NCBI GenBank assembly: GCA_949300345.1
Contig: CASGDR010000010.1
Span: forward strand, 1-32,957
Direction of reading: 5' to 3'
Length of the DNA: 32,957 nucleotides
From: an uncultured bacterium
GTDB lineage: Bacteria; Bacillota_I; Bacilli_A; RFN20; CAG-826
Part shown: positions 20,873 through 25,187 of the stretch, in pieces
Layout: the number at the start of each line of letters is the position of its first letter
Numbering within the stretch: the first letter of the stretch is position 1
Program-made: the position numbers and the translations under genes
Notes under the pieces: model-generated
Seen by the model: only the letters and a program-made list of their open reading frames with translations
Database searches by the model: none
Told to the model about the DNA's origin: nothing

Positions 20873-20880
20873 AAATGGCT

Positions 20881-22305
20881 ATGAAAAGGAGCCACGGGAT
20901 TTTACTGGGCCTAGTCGGAGCCATCTCCTTCGCGGTTGGCATCTGTTCCATGCACTTGGTTCCCATTTTCGCCCAAGACGAGGCCACTACCTACTGCGCC
21001 GATCTTGATTTCGGAAAGAGCGACTATAGCGGTTCTAAAGCCATATCCTCCTATGTCGATGTGATCAACGGGACCAGTTCGGCCAACCGTTACAAGGACT
21101 ATTCGCACAATATCCGCCTCTCTTCCATTTCATCCGACCATGTCTATTTCGAGCCGGCCAACGCCTCCACCGACTACGCCGTGAGGATCGGCTCAGGCAA
21201 CAACAAAGGAACCGTCACCTTCTACTTGGAAGAGACCCTTTGCTTCGAATATGTGGAATTCTATGCCTGGAGCTATCGCTCGGATGAGACTGTTTCCCTG
21301 AAGGTCACTACCGACAAGGATAGCGTTGGGGTCACCCTTTCCTTTTCCTCTTTCCTTCCGTCTTTTGAAGCCGGACAGGGGGTAAGGGCCACCAACATGG
21401 CCATAAACGAGGGCATCTCCTCTTTTACCTTGGCCAATACCGATAGCAGGGTCTCGCTAGGCAAGATCCTCTTCAAGGTAAGCGATGGAGGCACCCAGCC
21501 CTCACCGTCGAGTTCTTCTTCATCCTCAAGCTCTTCCAGTTCCTCCTCCAGTTCTTCTTCCAGCACTTCCTCCGGAGATGCCCCATCCCATTCCTATTGG
21601 GACGGATTTGATTGGAACCGGACGGGTTCTGCGCTGAAAACCGCTTTGTACAACCATATAAATAGCCACACCAATGTGGGTTATGACGGCTTATGGGATG
21701 TCTATAAGGATTCCGAAACCGACGAAAACGGCAAGATCGTGGACATGTATTCGAACAAGCGTTGGACCGTGGGGCAAAAATGCGGCAATTACCAAAAGGA
21801 AGGCGACTGCGTCAACCGCGAGCACACCGTGCCCCAGTCGGTCTTCAACGAAGCCAGTCCCATGAAAGCCGATGCCTTCCATGTCTTTCCGACCGACGGC
21901 TATGTAAACGGGAGAAGGAGCCGTCATCCCCATGGGGAAGTAGGGGGCGCCACCTATACTTCCGGGAACGGCTCGATGCTTGGCAGTTCCAACTATCCCG
22001 GCTATTCGGGTACCGTCTTCGAACCCATCGACCAGTGGAAAGGAGACTTTGCCAGGGCCTACTTCTATATGGTTACCTGCTACCAGAACAAGGTTTCTTC
22101 CTGGAACTATGACATGTTCTCCCAAAACACCTACCCCTCCCTTACCAGCTGGGCCGTAAACATGCTTCTTGAATGGTCGGACAATGACCCGGTCGACGAT
22201 TTCGAGAGGCAGCGCAACGATGGAGTCTACAAGCACCAGAAGAACCGCAATCCCTTCATCGATTATCCCGAAGCCGCCCATTTGATTTGGGATGGGGCCT
22301 ACTGA
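20881..22305 (+). CDS. Secreted EndA-type nuclease, second copy (intact)
   Basis: A 474-residue exported DNase/RNase of the Endonuclease I family (His-Me finger). The signal peptide is about 1-32 (GILLGLVGAISFAVGI). A beta-rich module (about 36-195, TYCADLDFG...FEYVEFYAWSY...SLGKILFKV) resembles that of its neighbours. A serine linker of about 28 residues (near 206-233) leads to the nuclease domain (about 240-474): IVDMYSNKRW, NREHTVPQS with E314-H315 as the expected metal and catalytic pair, HVFPTDGYVNGRRS and NRNPFIDYPEAAHLIWDG. Likely roles are nutrient recovery from DNA or escape from DNA traps. ATG 20881 is preferred over 20875 because it sits at the transcript start predicted from the -10. 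Confidence 0.92.
   Translation: MKRSHGILLGLVGAISFAVGICSMHLVPIFAQDEATTYCADLDFGKSDYSGSKAISSYVDVINGTSSANRYKDYSHNIRLSSISSDHVYFEPANASTDYAVRIGSGNNKGTVTFYLEETLCFEYVEFYAWSYRSDETVSLKVTTDKDSVGVTLSFSSFLPSFEAGQGVRATNMAINEGISSFTLANTDSRVSLGKILFKVSDGGTQPSPSSSSSSSSSSSSSSSSSSSTSSGDAPSHSYWDGFDWNRTGSALKTALYNHINSHTNVGYDGLWDVYKDSETDENGKIVDMYSNKRWTVGQKCGNYQKEGDCVNREHTVPQSVFNEASPMKADAFHVFPTDGYVNGRRSRHPHGEVGGATYTSGNGSMLGSSNYPGYSGTVFEPIDQWKGDFARAYFYMVTCYQNKVSSWNYDMFSQNTYPSLTSWAVNMLLEWSDNDPVDDFERQRNDGVYKHQKNRNPFIDYPEAAHLIWDGAY
21949..22026 (+). repeat. 78-bp stretch identical between the first two nuclease genes (copy 2)
   Basis: Identical to 20472-20549. The third nuclease gene is clearly different in the matching region (YSVQACEP instead of YSGTVFEP). 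Confidence 0.85.
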
Positions 22306-22336: not shown

Positions 22337-23797
22337 ATGAATAGGAAAGCCTTTCTGATATCTTTCCTCGGGGCCTTGGGCCTCAGCGTTTCTTCCATCC
22401 TCCTCGGTTCCATCACCCTAGGGGTTGTGGGGCAAGAGGACGTTTCCAAAAATTGCTACAGCATTACCTTCGGCGACCTGGCATATTCGAATTGCAGAAC
22501 CGCCTTTTCGGGCGGGGACATATCTTCGGCCCCCTTCGATTATTCCTTTCCCGCCCTTAGCGGTGGAACCTATAGCACCAATAGGACCTATAGGCAGGAT
22601 AGGGGATATGCATTGAAGTTCTCTTCTTTGTATGAGACCGGCTACTTTGAGGTCAGTTTTTCCTCCAGTGTGGTCAGCGACGTCTATCTATTCGTCTATG
22701 GCTATATCAGCGAAAGCGGCTTCCATGATACCGAGCCCGGCATCCAAGTCACCACCTCGGCCAATACGACTGGGGTTTCTTCCTACCTCATCAGCGATCC
22801 GCAGTTTGACTATACCGGAGACACCACGGTGGACATGGGCATGGACCTGGAAGCTTATGAGGCCCCTTACATCTACCGTTTCTCGGGATTGGACAATGGC
22901 AGTGGGGATGCTTCTACCTGGATGAGGATCTCCGCCTTGCCCGATAAGGACAATTCGGTTTATGCCTCGCGCTTTTATCTAGCCAAGATCACCTTCACGG
23001 TCACTGAAAGCCAGCCTTCTTCGAGTTCTTCCTCAAGCGCCTCTTCAAGCTCTTCCTCCTATAGCGAGCCCGATCTTCCTACTTACTATGACGGAATCGA
23101 TTGGTCGCTTACGGGCGCCGAGTTGAAAAACGCCCTCCATGACACCGTTTCCAGCAATACGAAGACCCTTTCCTATAATGACCTTCTTACGGCCTATCAA
23201 ACTACCGACGTGGTGGACGGCTATATCCTCGACATGTATTCCAACCAGAAATACGCCATAGACGACAATGGTGCCTCGGCCGATCAGGAAGGGGAGGGGT
23301 ATAACCGGGAGCACATAGTCCCCCAAAGCCTATTTGAGGAAAAGCTTCCGATGAGGACCGACCTCTTCCATGTTTATCCCACCGACATCTATGTGAATAA
23401 ATGCCGCAGCAACTATGTCCACGCCGAGCTCGATAGCGTTTCCTTTACCTCCAGCAACGGCACCGCGGTCGGATATTCAAGCGCCCCCGGATATAGCGTC
23501 CAGGCCTGCGAACCCGCCGACGAATACAAAGGGGACATCGCCCGGTCGTATTTCTACATGGTTACCCGCTATCAAGACGTCATCTCCGGTTGGAGGAGCT
23601 ATGCGATGTTCAGCAAAGACAGCTTCCCTTCATTGAGCCAGTGGGCCCTGGAGACCCTGCTCAAATGGCATGACCAAGATCCGGTCAGCCAAAGGGAAAT
23701 CGACCGCAACAACGCCGTCTACGCTTTGCAAAACAACCGCAATCCCTTCATCGATTGCTCAGATTGGGCCCACATGGTCTTCGACGGGGCCTACTAG
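22337..23797 (+). CDS. Secreted EndA-type nuclease, third copy (divergent)
   Basis: A 486-residue exported nuclease with the architecture of the two genes before it. A signal peptide (about 1-32, FLISFLGALGLSVSSILLG), a different and longer beta-rich module (about 38-225), a short serine linker (near 230-250), then the Endonuclease I domain: ILDMYSNQKYAI, YNREHIVPQSLFEEKLPMR, DLFHVYPTDIYVNKCRSNY, DIARSYFYMVTRYQDV and NRNPFIDCSDWAHMVFDGAY. The Arg-Glu-His pair and the Asn-rich metal loop are kept, so it should be active. Its divergence suggests a different substrate or partner from copies 1 and 2. It has its own promoter. Confidence 0.92.
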   Translation: MNRKAFLISFLGALGLSVSSILLGSITLGVVGQEDVSKNCYSITFGDLAYSNCRTAFSGGDISSAPFDYSFPALSGGTYSTNRTYRQDRGYALKFSSLYETGYFEVSFSSSVVSDVYLFVYGYISESGFHDTEPGIQVTTSANTTGVSSYLISDPQFDYTGDTTVDMGMDLEAYEAPYIYRFSGLDNGSGDASTWMRISALPDKDNSVYASRFYLAKITFTVTESQPSSSSSSSASSSSSSYSEPDLPTYYDGIDWSLTGAELKNALHDTVSSNTKTLSYNDLLTAYQTTDVVDGYILDMYSNQKYAIDDNGASADQEGEGYNREHIVPQSLFEEKLPMRTDLFHVYPTDIYVNKCRSNYVHAELDSVSFTSSNGTAVGYSSAPGYSVQACEPADEYKGDIARSYFYMVTRYQDVISGWRSYAMFSKDSFPSLSQWALETLLKWHDQDPVSQREIDRNNAVYALQNNRNPFIDCSDWAHMVFDGAY

Positions 23798-23810: not shown

Positions 23811-23838
23811 TTTACTTAAGGAACATTCTTAGTAAAAT
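23811..23838 (+). promoter_or_regulatory. metK: Promoter of the metK leader
   Basis: TTTACT (23811-23816), 16 bases, TAAAAT (23833-23838). The expected +1 is near 23845, leaving a leader of about 158 bases before metK. Confidence 0.7.
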
Positions 23839-23844
23839 ATCGCC

Positions 23845-23952
23845 CAGAAAAGGCGTCCATCAAGAAGTCCTGCGCGGGGAATGCGGGGCTAGCAACTCCG
23901 GGATACCGGTAAGTGCTCACCCCAGCCGGATCCGACCCCGGAACGATGGACA
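23845..23952 (+). ncRNA. Structured metK leader, candidate divergent SAM-I-clan riboswitch
   Basis: The closing stem P1 is GTCCATC (23855-23861) with GATGGAC (23945-23951). Next is AAGAAG, like the J1/2 of SAM-I (ATCAAGAG). A hairpin CGC/GCG around 23873-23885 holds loop GGGGAAT. A long hairpin follows: GGGG (23885-23888) with CCCC (23920-23923), then GC-A-ACT (23892-23897) opposite AGT-GC (23912-23916), then CCGG-GATA-CCGG. The GC-A-AC / GT-GC bulge is the SAM-contact element of SAM-I and SAM-IV P3. A last hairpin, CCGG (23926-23929) with CCGG (23938-23941), precedes AAC and P1. The GAGGGA and GGCCC core of classical SAM-I P2 is missing. Position before metK and a terminator supports SAM control. 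Confidence 0.6.
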
Positions 23953-23963
23953 TGGGAAGATTT

Positions 23964-23990
23964 CCTCCCTAGGTCGGGAGGGCTTTTCTT
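23964..23990 (+). terminator. Intrinsic terminator in the metK leader
   Basis: CCTCCC (23964-23969) pairs with GGGAGG (23976-23981), followed by CTTTTCTT. An alternative hairpin GGAA-GAT-TTCC just upstream overlaps its 5' arm, so the two could be mutually exclusive. metK begins 12 bases later, which suggests attenuation. Confidence 0.8.
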
Positions 23991-24002: not shown

Positions 24003-25187
24003 ATGGCCAAGCATCCCGTATTGTTTACTTCCGAATCCGTATCCGAAGGACACCCCGACAAGGTGGCCGACCAGATCGCCGACGCGATTTTGGACGCCTG
24101 TCTTCAAGGCGACCCCGATAGCCACGTCGCGGTCGAGGTCTTTACCACGACCGAATACATCCTCATCGGCGGGGAGGTAACCACCAAGGTCAAGGTGGAC
24201 TACGAGGGCATCGCCAGGAAGGTCCTCAAGGACATCGGCTACCTCAAACCCGAGGACGGCATCTCCATCGATTGCAAGATCGAAAACCGCATCAAGGAAC
24301 AATCCCCCGATATCGCCGGGGGGATCTATAACAAAGACCCTCTCGAAGCCGGGGCCGGGGACCAGGGTTTTGTCTTTGGCTACGCCACCGACGAGACCGA
24401 GGGCTACATGCCCCTTGCCATCTCCGTGGCCCACAAGTTGGTCAGGAGGGCCTCAGAACTTCGCAAGGGCGGCCAGTTCAAAGGCGCCCGTCCCGACATG
24501 AAGTCGCAGGTGACCATCGATTATAGCGAGCCTAGCCATCCTAGACTCCACACGGTGGTCATGTCGATCCAGCACGAAGAGTCGCTAGGGCAGAAGCAAC
24601 TGCAGCAATTCGTCAATGAAAACATCATCCTTCCGGTCGTGGATTCCTTCGGGCTCAACCATGATTTCAAATTGCTCATCAATCCCTCGGGCCGCTTCGT
24701 GATCGGCGGGCCGGCCGGGGATACCGGGCTTACGGGCCGGAAATTGGTCGTGGATACCTATGGGGGCAGCTGCCGCCACGGCGGGGGTGCCTTCTCGGGC
24801 AAAGATCCCAGCAAGGTGGACCGCTCGGCCGCCCTATATGCCCGATACATCGCCAAGAATCTGGTGGCTGCCAAAGCCGCCAAGCGCCTGGAAATCCAGA
24901 TTGCCTATGCCATCGGGGTAGCCCGGCCCGTATCCATATCCGTGGAGGATTTCGGGACCGCTAGCTATAGCAAGGACGACATCATCGAGGCCATCGAAAC
25001 CTGCTTTGACGCCCGTCCCGGGGCCATCATCGCCGCCTTCGGGCTCAATCACCCAGAAACCTTTAGGTATCGCGATACCTGCAACTACGGCTGCTTCGGG
25101 CGTCCCGACCTCGATTTGCCTTGGGAAAAGACCGATAAGGCAAACGAGCTTATCGCCCTATTTGCCCAAAAAAGAAAAATCCGCTGA
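24003..25187 (+). CDS. metK: S-adenosylmethionine synthetase
   Basis: A 394-residue cytoplasmic enzyme that makes SAM from methionine and ATP. Hallmarks are FTSESVSEGHPDKVADQI at the N-terminus (ATP site His and Asp), GAGDQGFVFGYATDET (near 116), the signature GGPAGDTGLTGRKLVVDTYGG (near 234) and GGGAFSGKDPSKVDRSAA (near 259). Length and order are normal for bacterial MetK. AAAGGA lies 6 bases before ATG. It is probably controlled by the leader RNA and terminator directly upstream. Confidence 0.98.
   Translation: MAKHPVLFTSESVSEGHPDKVADQIADAILDACLQGDPDSHVAVEVFTTTEYILIGGEVTTKVKVDYEGIARKVLKDIGYLKPEDGISIDCKIENRIKEQSPDIAGGIYNKDPLEAGAGDQGFVFGYATDETEGYMPLAISVAHKLVRRASELRKGGQFKGARPDMKSQVTIDYSEPSHPRLHTVVMSIQHEESLGQKQLQQFVNENIILPVVDSFGLNHDFKLLINPSGRFVIGGPAGDTGLTGRKLVVDTYGGSCRHGGGAFSGKDPSKVDRSAALYARYIAKNLVAAKAAKRLEIQIAYAIGVARPVSISVEDFGTASYSKDDIIEAIETCFDARPGAIIAAFGLNHPETFRYRDTCNYGCFGRPDLDLPWEKTDKANELIALFAQKRKIR

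What the first reader, a model, noticed from the sequence alone, without database searches (positions are those of the whole stretch)
23845..23990. metK leader: a divergent SAM-I-clan riboswitch, or a new SAM-sensing class
Between a good promoter and metK lies an RNA with a closing stem, three internal hairpins, and an intrinsic terminator ending 12 bases before the gene. The ends (ATCAAGAAG and AACGATGG) and the GC-A-AC / GT-GC bulge in the central hairpin match the SAM-contacting parts of SAM-I and SAM-IV. The classical P2 core (GAGGGA, GGCCC, GAA) is absent and replaced by a CGC/GCG hairpin with a GGGG loop that could pair with CCCC at 23920-23923. A standard covariance model might miss it.
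Basis: partly seen in the sequence, partly recalled or inferred. Interest (0 to 1): 0.62.

Follow-up and report, generated by a model that had tools for sequence, protein, structure and literature searches.

The report
Divergent SAM-I riboswitch before metK
The stretch before metK is a real RNA switch that very probably senses S-adenosylmethionine and belongs to the known SAM-I lineage, but it has lost that lineage's hallmark kinked stem, and covariation indicates that it uses a different loop (that of stem P4) to block its terminator.

Summary
Window 23852-23954 is a SAM-I-clan aptamer followed by an intrinsic terminator and metK. Rfam misses it at gathering score, and also at E 0.1 when the whole window is scanned. 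A focused scan gives RF00162 at 38.6 bits (cut-off 44.4). The element precedes metK in 32 genomes of the genus, and a model of it hits 196 of 279 genomes of the order. All four stems and the P2-loop/J3-4 pseudoknot covary strongly. Every presumed SAM-contact position is kept except one P1 pair, changed in some relatives. So it is not a new SAM-sensing class. It is a clade-specific SAM-I derivative in which P2 is one continuous helix with no kink-turn, while P4 and PK-1 are kept. That combination fits none of SAM-I, SAM-IV or SAM-I/IV as published.

Unexpected result: in 64 of 82 leaders (20 genera, window included) the P4 loop is complementary to the terminator loop plus 3' strand. This covaries (0 of 2,000 permutations as strong; 0 of 5,000 for terminator-loop bases alone). 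In those leaders the classical P1-3'-strand antiterminator is no better than chance; in the other 18 leaders it is present. I infer a P4-loop antiterminator. SAM binding and termination were not tested.

The parts
23811..23838 (+). sigma-70-like promoter, TTTACT-16-TAAAAT
   Evidence: consensus scan, 9 of 12 matches
23846..23852 (+). AGAAAAG near the 5' end of the transcript, complementary to the terminator U-tract (23983-23989); role uncertain
   Evidence: own versus permuted duplex energy in genera g1+g21: -8.9 versus -7.1, sd 0.38, 0/2000; many of these leaders are close relatives
23855..23861 (+). P1, 5' strand (GTCCATC)
   Evidence: 7 of 8 modelled P1 pairs have double changes in 72 leaders
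23862..23865 (+). J1/2 (AAGA), contains the presumed SAM-contacting G
   Evidence: G invariant in A1; aligned to RF00162
23866..23890 (+). P2: one continuous 9-bp helix (23866-23874/23882-23890), loop 23875-23881; no P2b, no kink-turn
   Evidence: all 7 modelled P2 pairs have double changes
23876..23879 (+). GGGG of the P2 loop, 5' half of pseudoknot PK-1
   Evidence: P2 loop x J3/4 covariation 0/2000
23891..23917 (+). P3 with the SAM-binding internal loop (AGCAAC / GTAAGTGCT)
   Evidence: core pairs invariant in 72 leaders, outer pairs covary
23920..23923 (+). CCCC of J3/4, 3' half of PK-1
23926..23941 (+). P4 hairpin (CCGG/CCGG) with loop ATCCGACC
   Evidence: 4 of 4 modelled P4 pairs have double changes
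23932..23937 (+). CCGACC of the P4 loop: proposed antiterminator strand, pairs with GGTCGG at 23972-23977
   Evidence: L4 x terminator loop+3' strand covariation 0/2000 in 64 leaders; loop bases only 0/5000
23945..23951 (+). P1, 3' strand (GATGGAC)
23963..23989 (+). intrinsic terminator: TCCTCCC-taggtc-GGGAGGG then CTTTTCT
   Evidence: scan; hairpin -11.9 kcal/mol
23972..23977 (+). GGTCGG spanning terminator loop and 3' strand, target of the P4 loop
23992..23997 (+). AAAGGA, likely ribosome-binding site of metK
   Evidence: sequence, 5 nt before the ATG
24003..25187 (+). metK, methionine adenosyltransferase (SAM synthetase)
   Evidence: TIGR01034, E 5.7e-151, above cut-off

Best explanation
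A SAM-sensing, transcription-terminating riboswitch that shuts off SAM synthetase (metK) when SAM is plentiful. Its aptamer is derived from SAM-I. It keeps the P1-P2-P3-P4 junction, the binding core and the P2-loop/J3-4 pseudoknot PK-1, but has replaced kink-turn plus P2b by one continuous P2 helix whose longer loop still reaches J3/4. Shown by comparison: all helices, PK-1, and base pairing between the P4 loop and the terminator loop plus 3' strand. Inferred: SAM as ligand, OFF polarity, and the switching step. Without SAM the P4 loop captures the 3' half of the terminator as it emerges, so RNA polymerase reads through into metK. With SAM, P1 closes and stacks with P4, the P4-loop/terminator helix loses to the local terminator hairpin, and transcription stops at the U-tract. 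Other members of the same family, and its relatives, do this job the classical way, with the 3' strand of P1 pairing to the terminator 5' half.
For: RF00162 aligns over positions 1-108 at 38.6 bits, E 2.3e-7 against all of Rfam in 401 nt. Covariation of the four stems and of PK-1. Positioned before metK in 32 of 33 genus genomes with a metK match and in every family leader read. Only 1 of 80 metK loci from across bacteria carries the model's match, the nearest one, L089, at 92.7 bits. Terminator directly before the gene. P4 loop x terminator: own -10.36 versus permuted -8.30 kcal/mol, sd 0.23, 0/2000 in 64 leaders of 20 genera; one leader per genus 0/400; three terminator-loop-facing positions 2.05 pairs versus 1.04 permuted, 0/5000. 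In the same leaders P1-3' strand x terminator 5' half is not above chance (588/2000), while in the 18 leaders without the P4-loop pairing it is strong (0/2000).
Against: No SAM binding or termination data. How SAM would break the P4-loop/terminator helix is not shown; a 9-25 nt tail could in principle bridge it with P1 closed. The trade-off between the two antiterminator modes is strong in raw counts (53/8/15/2) but rests on only 4 phylogenetically independent supported pairs, so it is not significant on the tree. Permutation tests do not fully remove relatedness. The element scores below the RF00162 cut-off.
Confidence: 0.76

Rival explanations
1. Ordinary SAM-I riboswitch whose switch is the classical one: the 3' strand of P1 and its tail pair with the terminator 5' strand, and the P4-loop complementarity is incidental, because both the P4 loop and the terminator 5' strand are C-rich.
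For: The classical pairing is clear in 18 leaders of 13 genera (0/2000) and in sister families. A short GGGA/TCCC tail pairing exists in the window, and tail x terminator 5' half is slightly above chance in the P4-loop group (5/2000).
Against: The P4 loop also covaries with terminator-loop bases that the terminator 5' strand does not pair with (0/5000). The control P4 loop x terminator 5' strand shows nothing (144/400). P1-3' strand x terminator 5' half is at chance in this group (588/2000).
Confidence: 0.17
2. A new SAM-sensing class unrelated by descent to SAM-I, sharing only the binding core by convergence.
For: The P2 architecture and expression platform differ; Rfam misses it at its cut-off.
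Against: Full-length RF00162 alignment with the same helix order, PK-1 and J4/1. Some members pass the RF00162 cut-off. Sister families at the same locus have kink-turn SAM-I.
Confidence: 0.03
3. The leader senses another ligand (SAH, spermidine or similar), as the published SAM-I-derived spermidine riboswitch does.
For: Precedent: spermidine riboswitches are rare SAM-I variants (PMC10853860). In 7 of 72 leaders one P1 pair next to the binding site is G-C instead of A-U.
Against: J1/2 and the P3 internal loop, the positions altered in the spermidine variants, are intact and invariant here. The gene is metK in every leader read, the commonest SAM-riboswitch target.
Confidence: 0.04

Closest known systems
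SAM-I (S-box) riboswitch, Rfam RF00162
   Same: P1-P4 order, invariant AUCAAGA / GCAAC / GUGC / GAU core, PK-1 between P2 loop and J3/4, P4 present, metK target, intrinsic terminator.
   Different: No P2a/P2b division and no kink-turn (described as conserved in SAM-I, PMC2258182); below Rfam cut-off; antiterminator apparently held by the P4 loop instead of P1.
SAM-I/IV, Rfam RF01725
   Same: P2 has no internal loop; P4 present (PMC6890682, PMC2864571).
   Different: SAM-I/IV is described as lacking PK-1; here PK-1 is present and covaries. RF01725 does not hit this element.
SAM-IV, Rfam RF00634
   Same: Shared binding core and PK-1; no SAM-I-type kink-turn.
   Different: SAM-IV lacks P4 and has PK-2 and P5 (PMC6890682); RF00634 does not hit this element.
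AdoCbl riboswitch loop-to-expression-platform pairing
   Same: A peripheral aptamer loop, C-rich in the description, pairs with sequence outside the core to control expression (PMC2258182).
   Different: There the pseudoknot forms with ligand; here the P4-loop pairing is inferred to form without ligand and to prevent termination.

Membership tests
SAM-I (RF00162) | conserved binding core (J1/2 G, P3 GCAAC / GUGC, P1 AU/GAU) | tested here: met
   invariant or nearly invariant columns in A1; 72-leader pair counts. Which residues contact SAM is own knowledge of the crystal structure.
SAM-I (RF00162) | four-stem order P1-P2-P3-P4 | tested here: met
   95.8% of cells paired, 23 of 29 pairs with double changes
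SAM-I (RF00162) | pseudoknot PK-1 between P2 loop and J3/4 | tested here: met
   own -7.28 versus permuted -3.76, 0/2000
SAM-I (RF00162) | kink-turn between P2a and P2b | tested here: not met
   single continuous P2, mostly 6-9 bp, in the family; sister families f2 and f20 keep P2b
SAM-I (RF00162) | score at or above the Rfam gathering cut-off (44.4 bits) | tested here: not met
   38.6 bits; 1 of 37 genus genomes and 1 of 18 other family leaders pass
SAM-I (RF00162) | P1 3' strand forms the antiterminator | tested here: inconclusive
   at chance in the group that contains the window (588/2000), strong in 18 other leaders (0/2000)
SAM-I (RF00162) | binds SAM | not testable with these tools
   needs in-line probing or calorimetry
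SAM-I/IV (RF01725) | P2 without internal loop | tested here: met
SAM-I/IV (RF01725) | absence of PK-1 | tested here: not met
   PK-1 present and covarying
SAM-I/IV (RF01725) | match to the RF01725 model | tested here: not met
   no match at the metK leader at E 10 in 8 genomes including the window's
SAM-IV (RF00634) | no P4; PK-2 and P5 present | tested here: not met
   P4 present and covarying; P3 loop of only 4 nt in the window; no model match at the leader
spermidine riboswitch (SAM-I variant) | changed nucleotides in J1/2 and the P3 internal loop | tested here: not met
   both are SAM-like and invariant; criterion from PMC10853860

The most novel reading that the evidence does not exclude
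A SAM-I-derived riboswitch lineage that lost the kink-turn yet kept PK-1, and in which control of the terminator has moved repeatedly between P1 and the P4 loop, so that a peripheral hairpin loop of the aptamer is itself the antiterminator.
Probability: 0.6. Interest if true: 0.62.

Novelty: new variant of a known kind. Interest (0 to 1): 0.52.

Why it matters
The SAM-I kink-turn is a textbook case in which the turn is needed to build the binding site (an A1nC k-turn mutation in the T. tengcongensis riboswitch abolishes SAM binding, PMC5061560). A natural lineage of roughly 190 genomes that dispenses with it but keeps the pseudoknot makes that dependence directly testable. The P4-loop antiterminator, if confirmed, would be a second way for a SAM-I aptamer to drive termination, and its repeated exchange with the classical mode in one bacterial family offers a way to study how expression platforms evolve. 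In practice, whole-window Rfam scans currently miss this metK regulator in nearly all genomes of the family tested.

Tried and rejected
Single-sequence folding alone: only marginally better than shuffles, and its minimum-energy fold pairs the P1 5' strand with the region before the ribosome-binding site; not pursued as the mechanism because comparison supports the aptamer. RF01725 and RF00634 as better homes: no match. Spermidine-type ligand change: contacts intact. A SAM-IV-like PK-2 from the P3 loop: that loop is only 4 nt in the window. Searching the rest of the genome for more copies: only the metK copy; the second metK copies of three genomes have no leader. The 5'-end/U-tract pairing is above chance in genera g1+g21 (0/2000) but not in the other genera (1184/2000), and the U-tract is inside RNA polymerase when termination is decided, so I did not make it part of the switch. 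Phylogenetic test of the trade-off between antiterminator modes: too few independent pairs. Literature search found no description of a P4-loop antiterminator for SAM-I, but most subscription papers are not held, including the original SAM-IV and SAM-I/IV structure papers.

Full report
What is there. Between a sigma-70-like promoter (23811-23838) and metK (24003-25187, TIGR01034) lies a structured leader ending in an intrinsic terminator (23963-23989). Rfam finds nothing there at gathering score nor at E 0.1 over the whole window. A focused scan of 401 nt aligns it end to end with RF00162 (SAM-I) at 38.6 bits, cut-off 44.4, E 2.3e-7.

Relatives. The window's genome has 36 relatives in its genus; 33 of the 37 genomes have a metK match. 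I read 33 leaders of that metK: 32 carry the element and one (G028) has lost it. A model of the aptamer (R1, 27 leaders) finds the element in 196 of 279 genomes of the order, 33 of 56 genera, and every family leader I read stands before metK. A family model (R2, 72 leaders) hits 1 of 80 metK loci drawn from all bacteria, the nearest relative L089, with 92.7 bits, where Rfam reports no SAM match even at E 0.1. Outside the family the metK leaders that the model reaches are mostly SAM-I above or near the Rfam cut-off: 14 of 18 examined pass it.

Structure. On the 27 genus leaders the named structure pairs in 95.4% of cells with double changes in 19 of 29 pairs; sliding the partners drops this to 30-39%. 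On 72 family leaders it is 95.8%, with 23 of 29 pairs and 561 cells doubly changed (that alignment was fitted to the model, so it leans towards it). P2 is one continuous helix, mostly 6-9 bp, with a loop mostly of 10-17 nt; there is no P2b and hence no kink-turn. A few leaders in genera g35 and g46 have a mismatch near the base of P2, which shortens the counted run. The P2 loop pairs with J3/4: own -7.28 against permuted -3.76 kcal/mol, sd 0.21, 0/2000; one leader per genus likewise 0/2000. Two leaders of sister family f2 (L189, L193) keep a P2b and pass the Rfam cut-off, so the loss of the kink-turn looks derived.

Binding site. J1/2 G, the GCAAC/GUGC internal loop of P3 and the P1 U-A pair next to the core are invariant. 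By my knowledge of the SAM-I crystal structure these are the SAM contacts. Seven of 72 leaders change the next P1 pair from A-U to G-C, not the window. The SAM-I-derived spermidine riboswitch changes J1/2 and the P3 internal loop (PMC10853860); that is not the case here. SAM is therefore the expected ligand.

Expression platform. The P4 loop carries a conserved CCCAC-like sequence in most leaders. It is complementary to the 3' part of the terminator loop and the top of the terminator 3' strand. In 64 of 82 analysed leaders (20 genera) the duplex is -6 kcal/mol or stronger; own -10.36 against permuted -8.30, sd 0.23, 0/2000. With one leader per genus across the whole set, own -6.36 against -4.04, 0/400. 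To exclude indirect similarity with the terminator 5' strand, I tested only the three loop positions that the terminator leaves unpaired: 2.05 pairs observed, 1.04 permuted, 0/5000. Examples: CCCAGAA/TTCTGGG, CCCATAA/TTATGGG, CCCACAA/TTGTGGG, CCACCT/AGGTGG, and CCGACC/GGTCGG in the window. The P4 loop against the terminator 5' strand shows nothing. In the 64 leaders the classical SAM-I pairing, P1 3' strand with terminator 5' half, is at chance (588/2000); in the 18 leaders lacking the P4-loop pairing it is strong, -8.97 against -5.22, 0/2000. On a metK tree the P4-loop trait needs up to 11 changes, at least 4 on supported branches. Raw counts of the trade-off are 53/8/15/2, but only 4 supported independent pairs exist and the sign test is not significant. 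Permutation does not remove shared ancestry completely; the genus-level versions are the safer numbers.

Mechanism. Because the P4-loop helix uses the top of the terminator 3' strand it excludes the complete terminator, so it should favour read-through. I infer that it forms without SAM and that P1 closure on SAM binding tips the balance to the terminator, giving OFF control of metK. How P1 closure disfavours the P4-loop helix is not shown. In genera g1 and g21 the 5' end of the leader also complements the U-tract and the bases behind it (own -8.9, permuted -7.1, sd 0.38, 0/2000; not in other genera). In the window this is AGAAAAG 23846-23852 with CTTTTCT 23983-23989. It cannot act before the polymerase has passed and may protect or shape the read-through RNA; I leave its role open.

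Compared with what is known. SAM-I: kink-turn described as conserved (PMC2258182). SAM-IV: lacks P4, has PK-1, PK-2 and P5; SAM-I/IV: undivided P2, P4, no PK-1 (PMC6890682; PMC2864571). The present element has P4, PK-1 and an undivided P2, a combination of its own. RF01725 and RF00634 do not match it. It works like SAM-I and descends from it, but fails SAM-I's kink-turn criterion, so I file it as a new variant, not a new class.

Limits. The library lacks most subscription papers, so absence of a published P4-loop antiterminator is not established. No binding or termination data exist for this RNA.

Noticed in passing
L003, L011, L012, L013, L014, L015, L017, L018, L020, L021, L022 (RF00162 hits elsewhere in the order): A second SAM-I-like group with no P4, kink-turn kept, J1/2 AUAAAGAGA instead of AUCAAGA, and a CUCCCAUC..GAUGGGAG-type terminator. 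It precedes metK once (L012) but otherwise unexpected genes: an operon with DUF3990 (L014), N-formylglutamate amidohydrolase (L018), an apparent ATPase by sequence (L020). Could be a SAM-I derivative with another ligand.
   Followed up: partly
L057 (G000:C1:212193-213275): The window's genome has a second, 43%-identical metK directly behind a DNA-methyltransferase-like ORF, with no riboswitch leader; similar extra metK copies occur in G014 and G029.
   Followed up: partly
L041 (G028): One single-contig genome of the same genus has metK without any trace of the leader, a natural loss of the switch.
   Followed up: no
L194, L195 (genus g25): P4 appears to be missing altogether in this genus while P1-P3 and PK-1 remain.
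   Followed up: no
window 20875-22305 and 22337-23797: Two adjacent endonuclease I (PF04231) paralogues with about 250-residue N-terminal parts that match no Pfam family, directly upstream of the metK promoter.
   Followed up: no
window 23846-23852 with 23983-23989: The 5' end of the transcript complements the terminator U-tract and downstream bases, covarying in two genera only; role unknown.
   Followed up: partly
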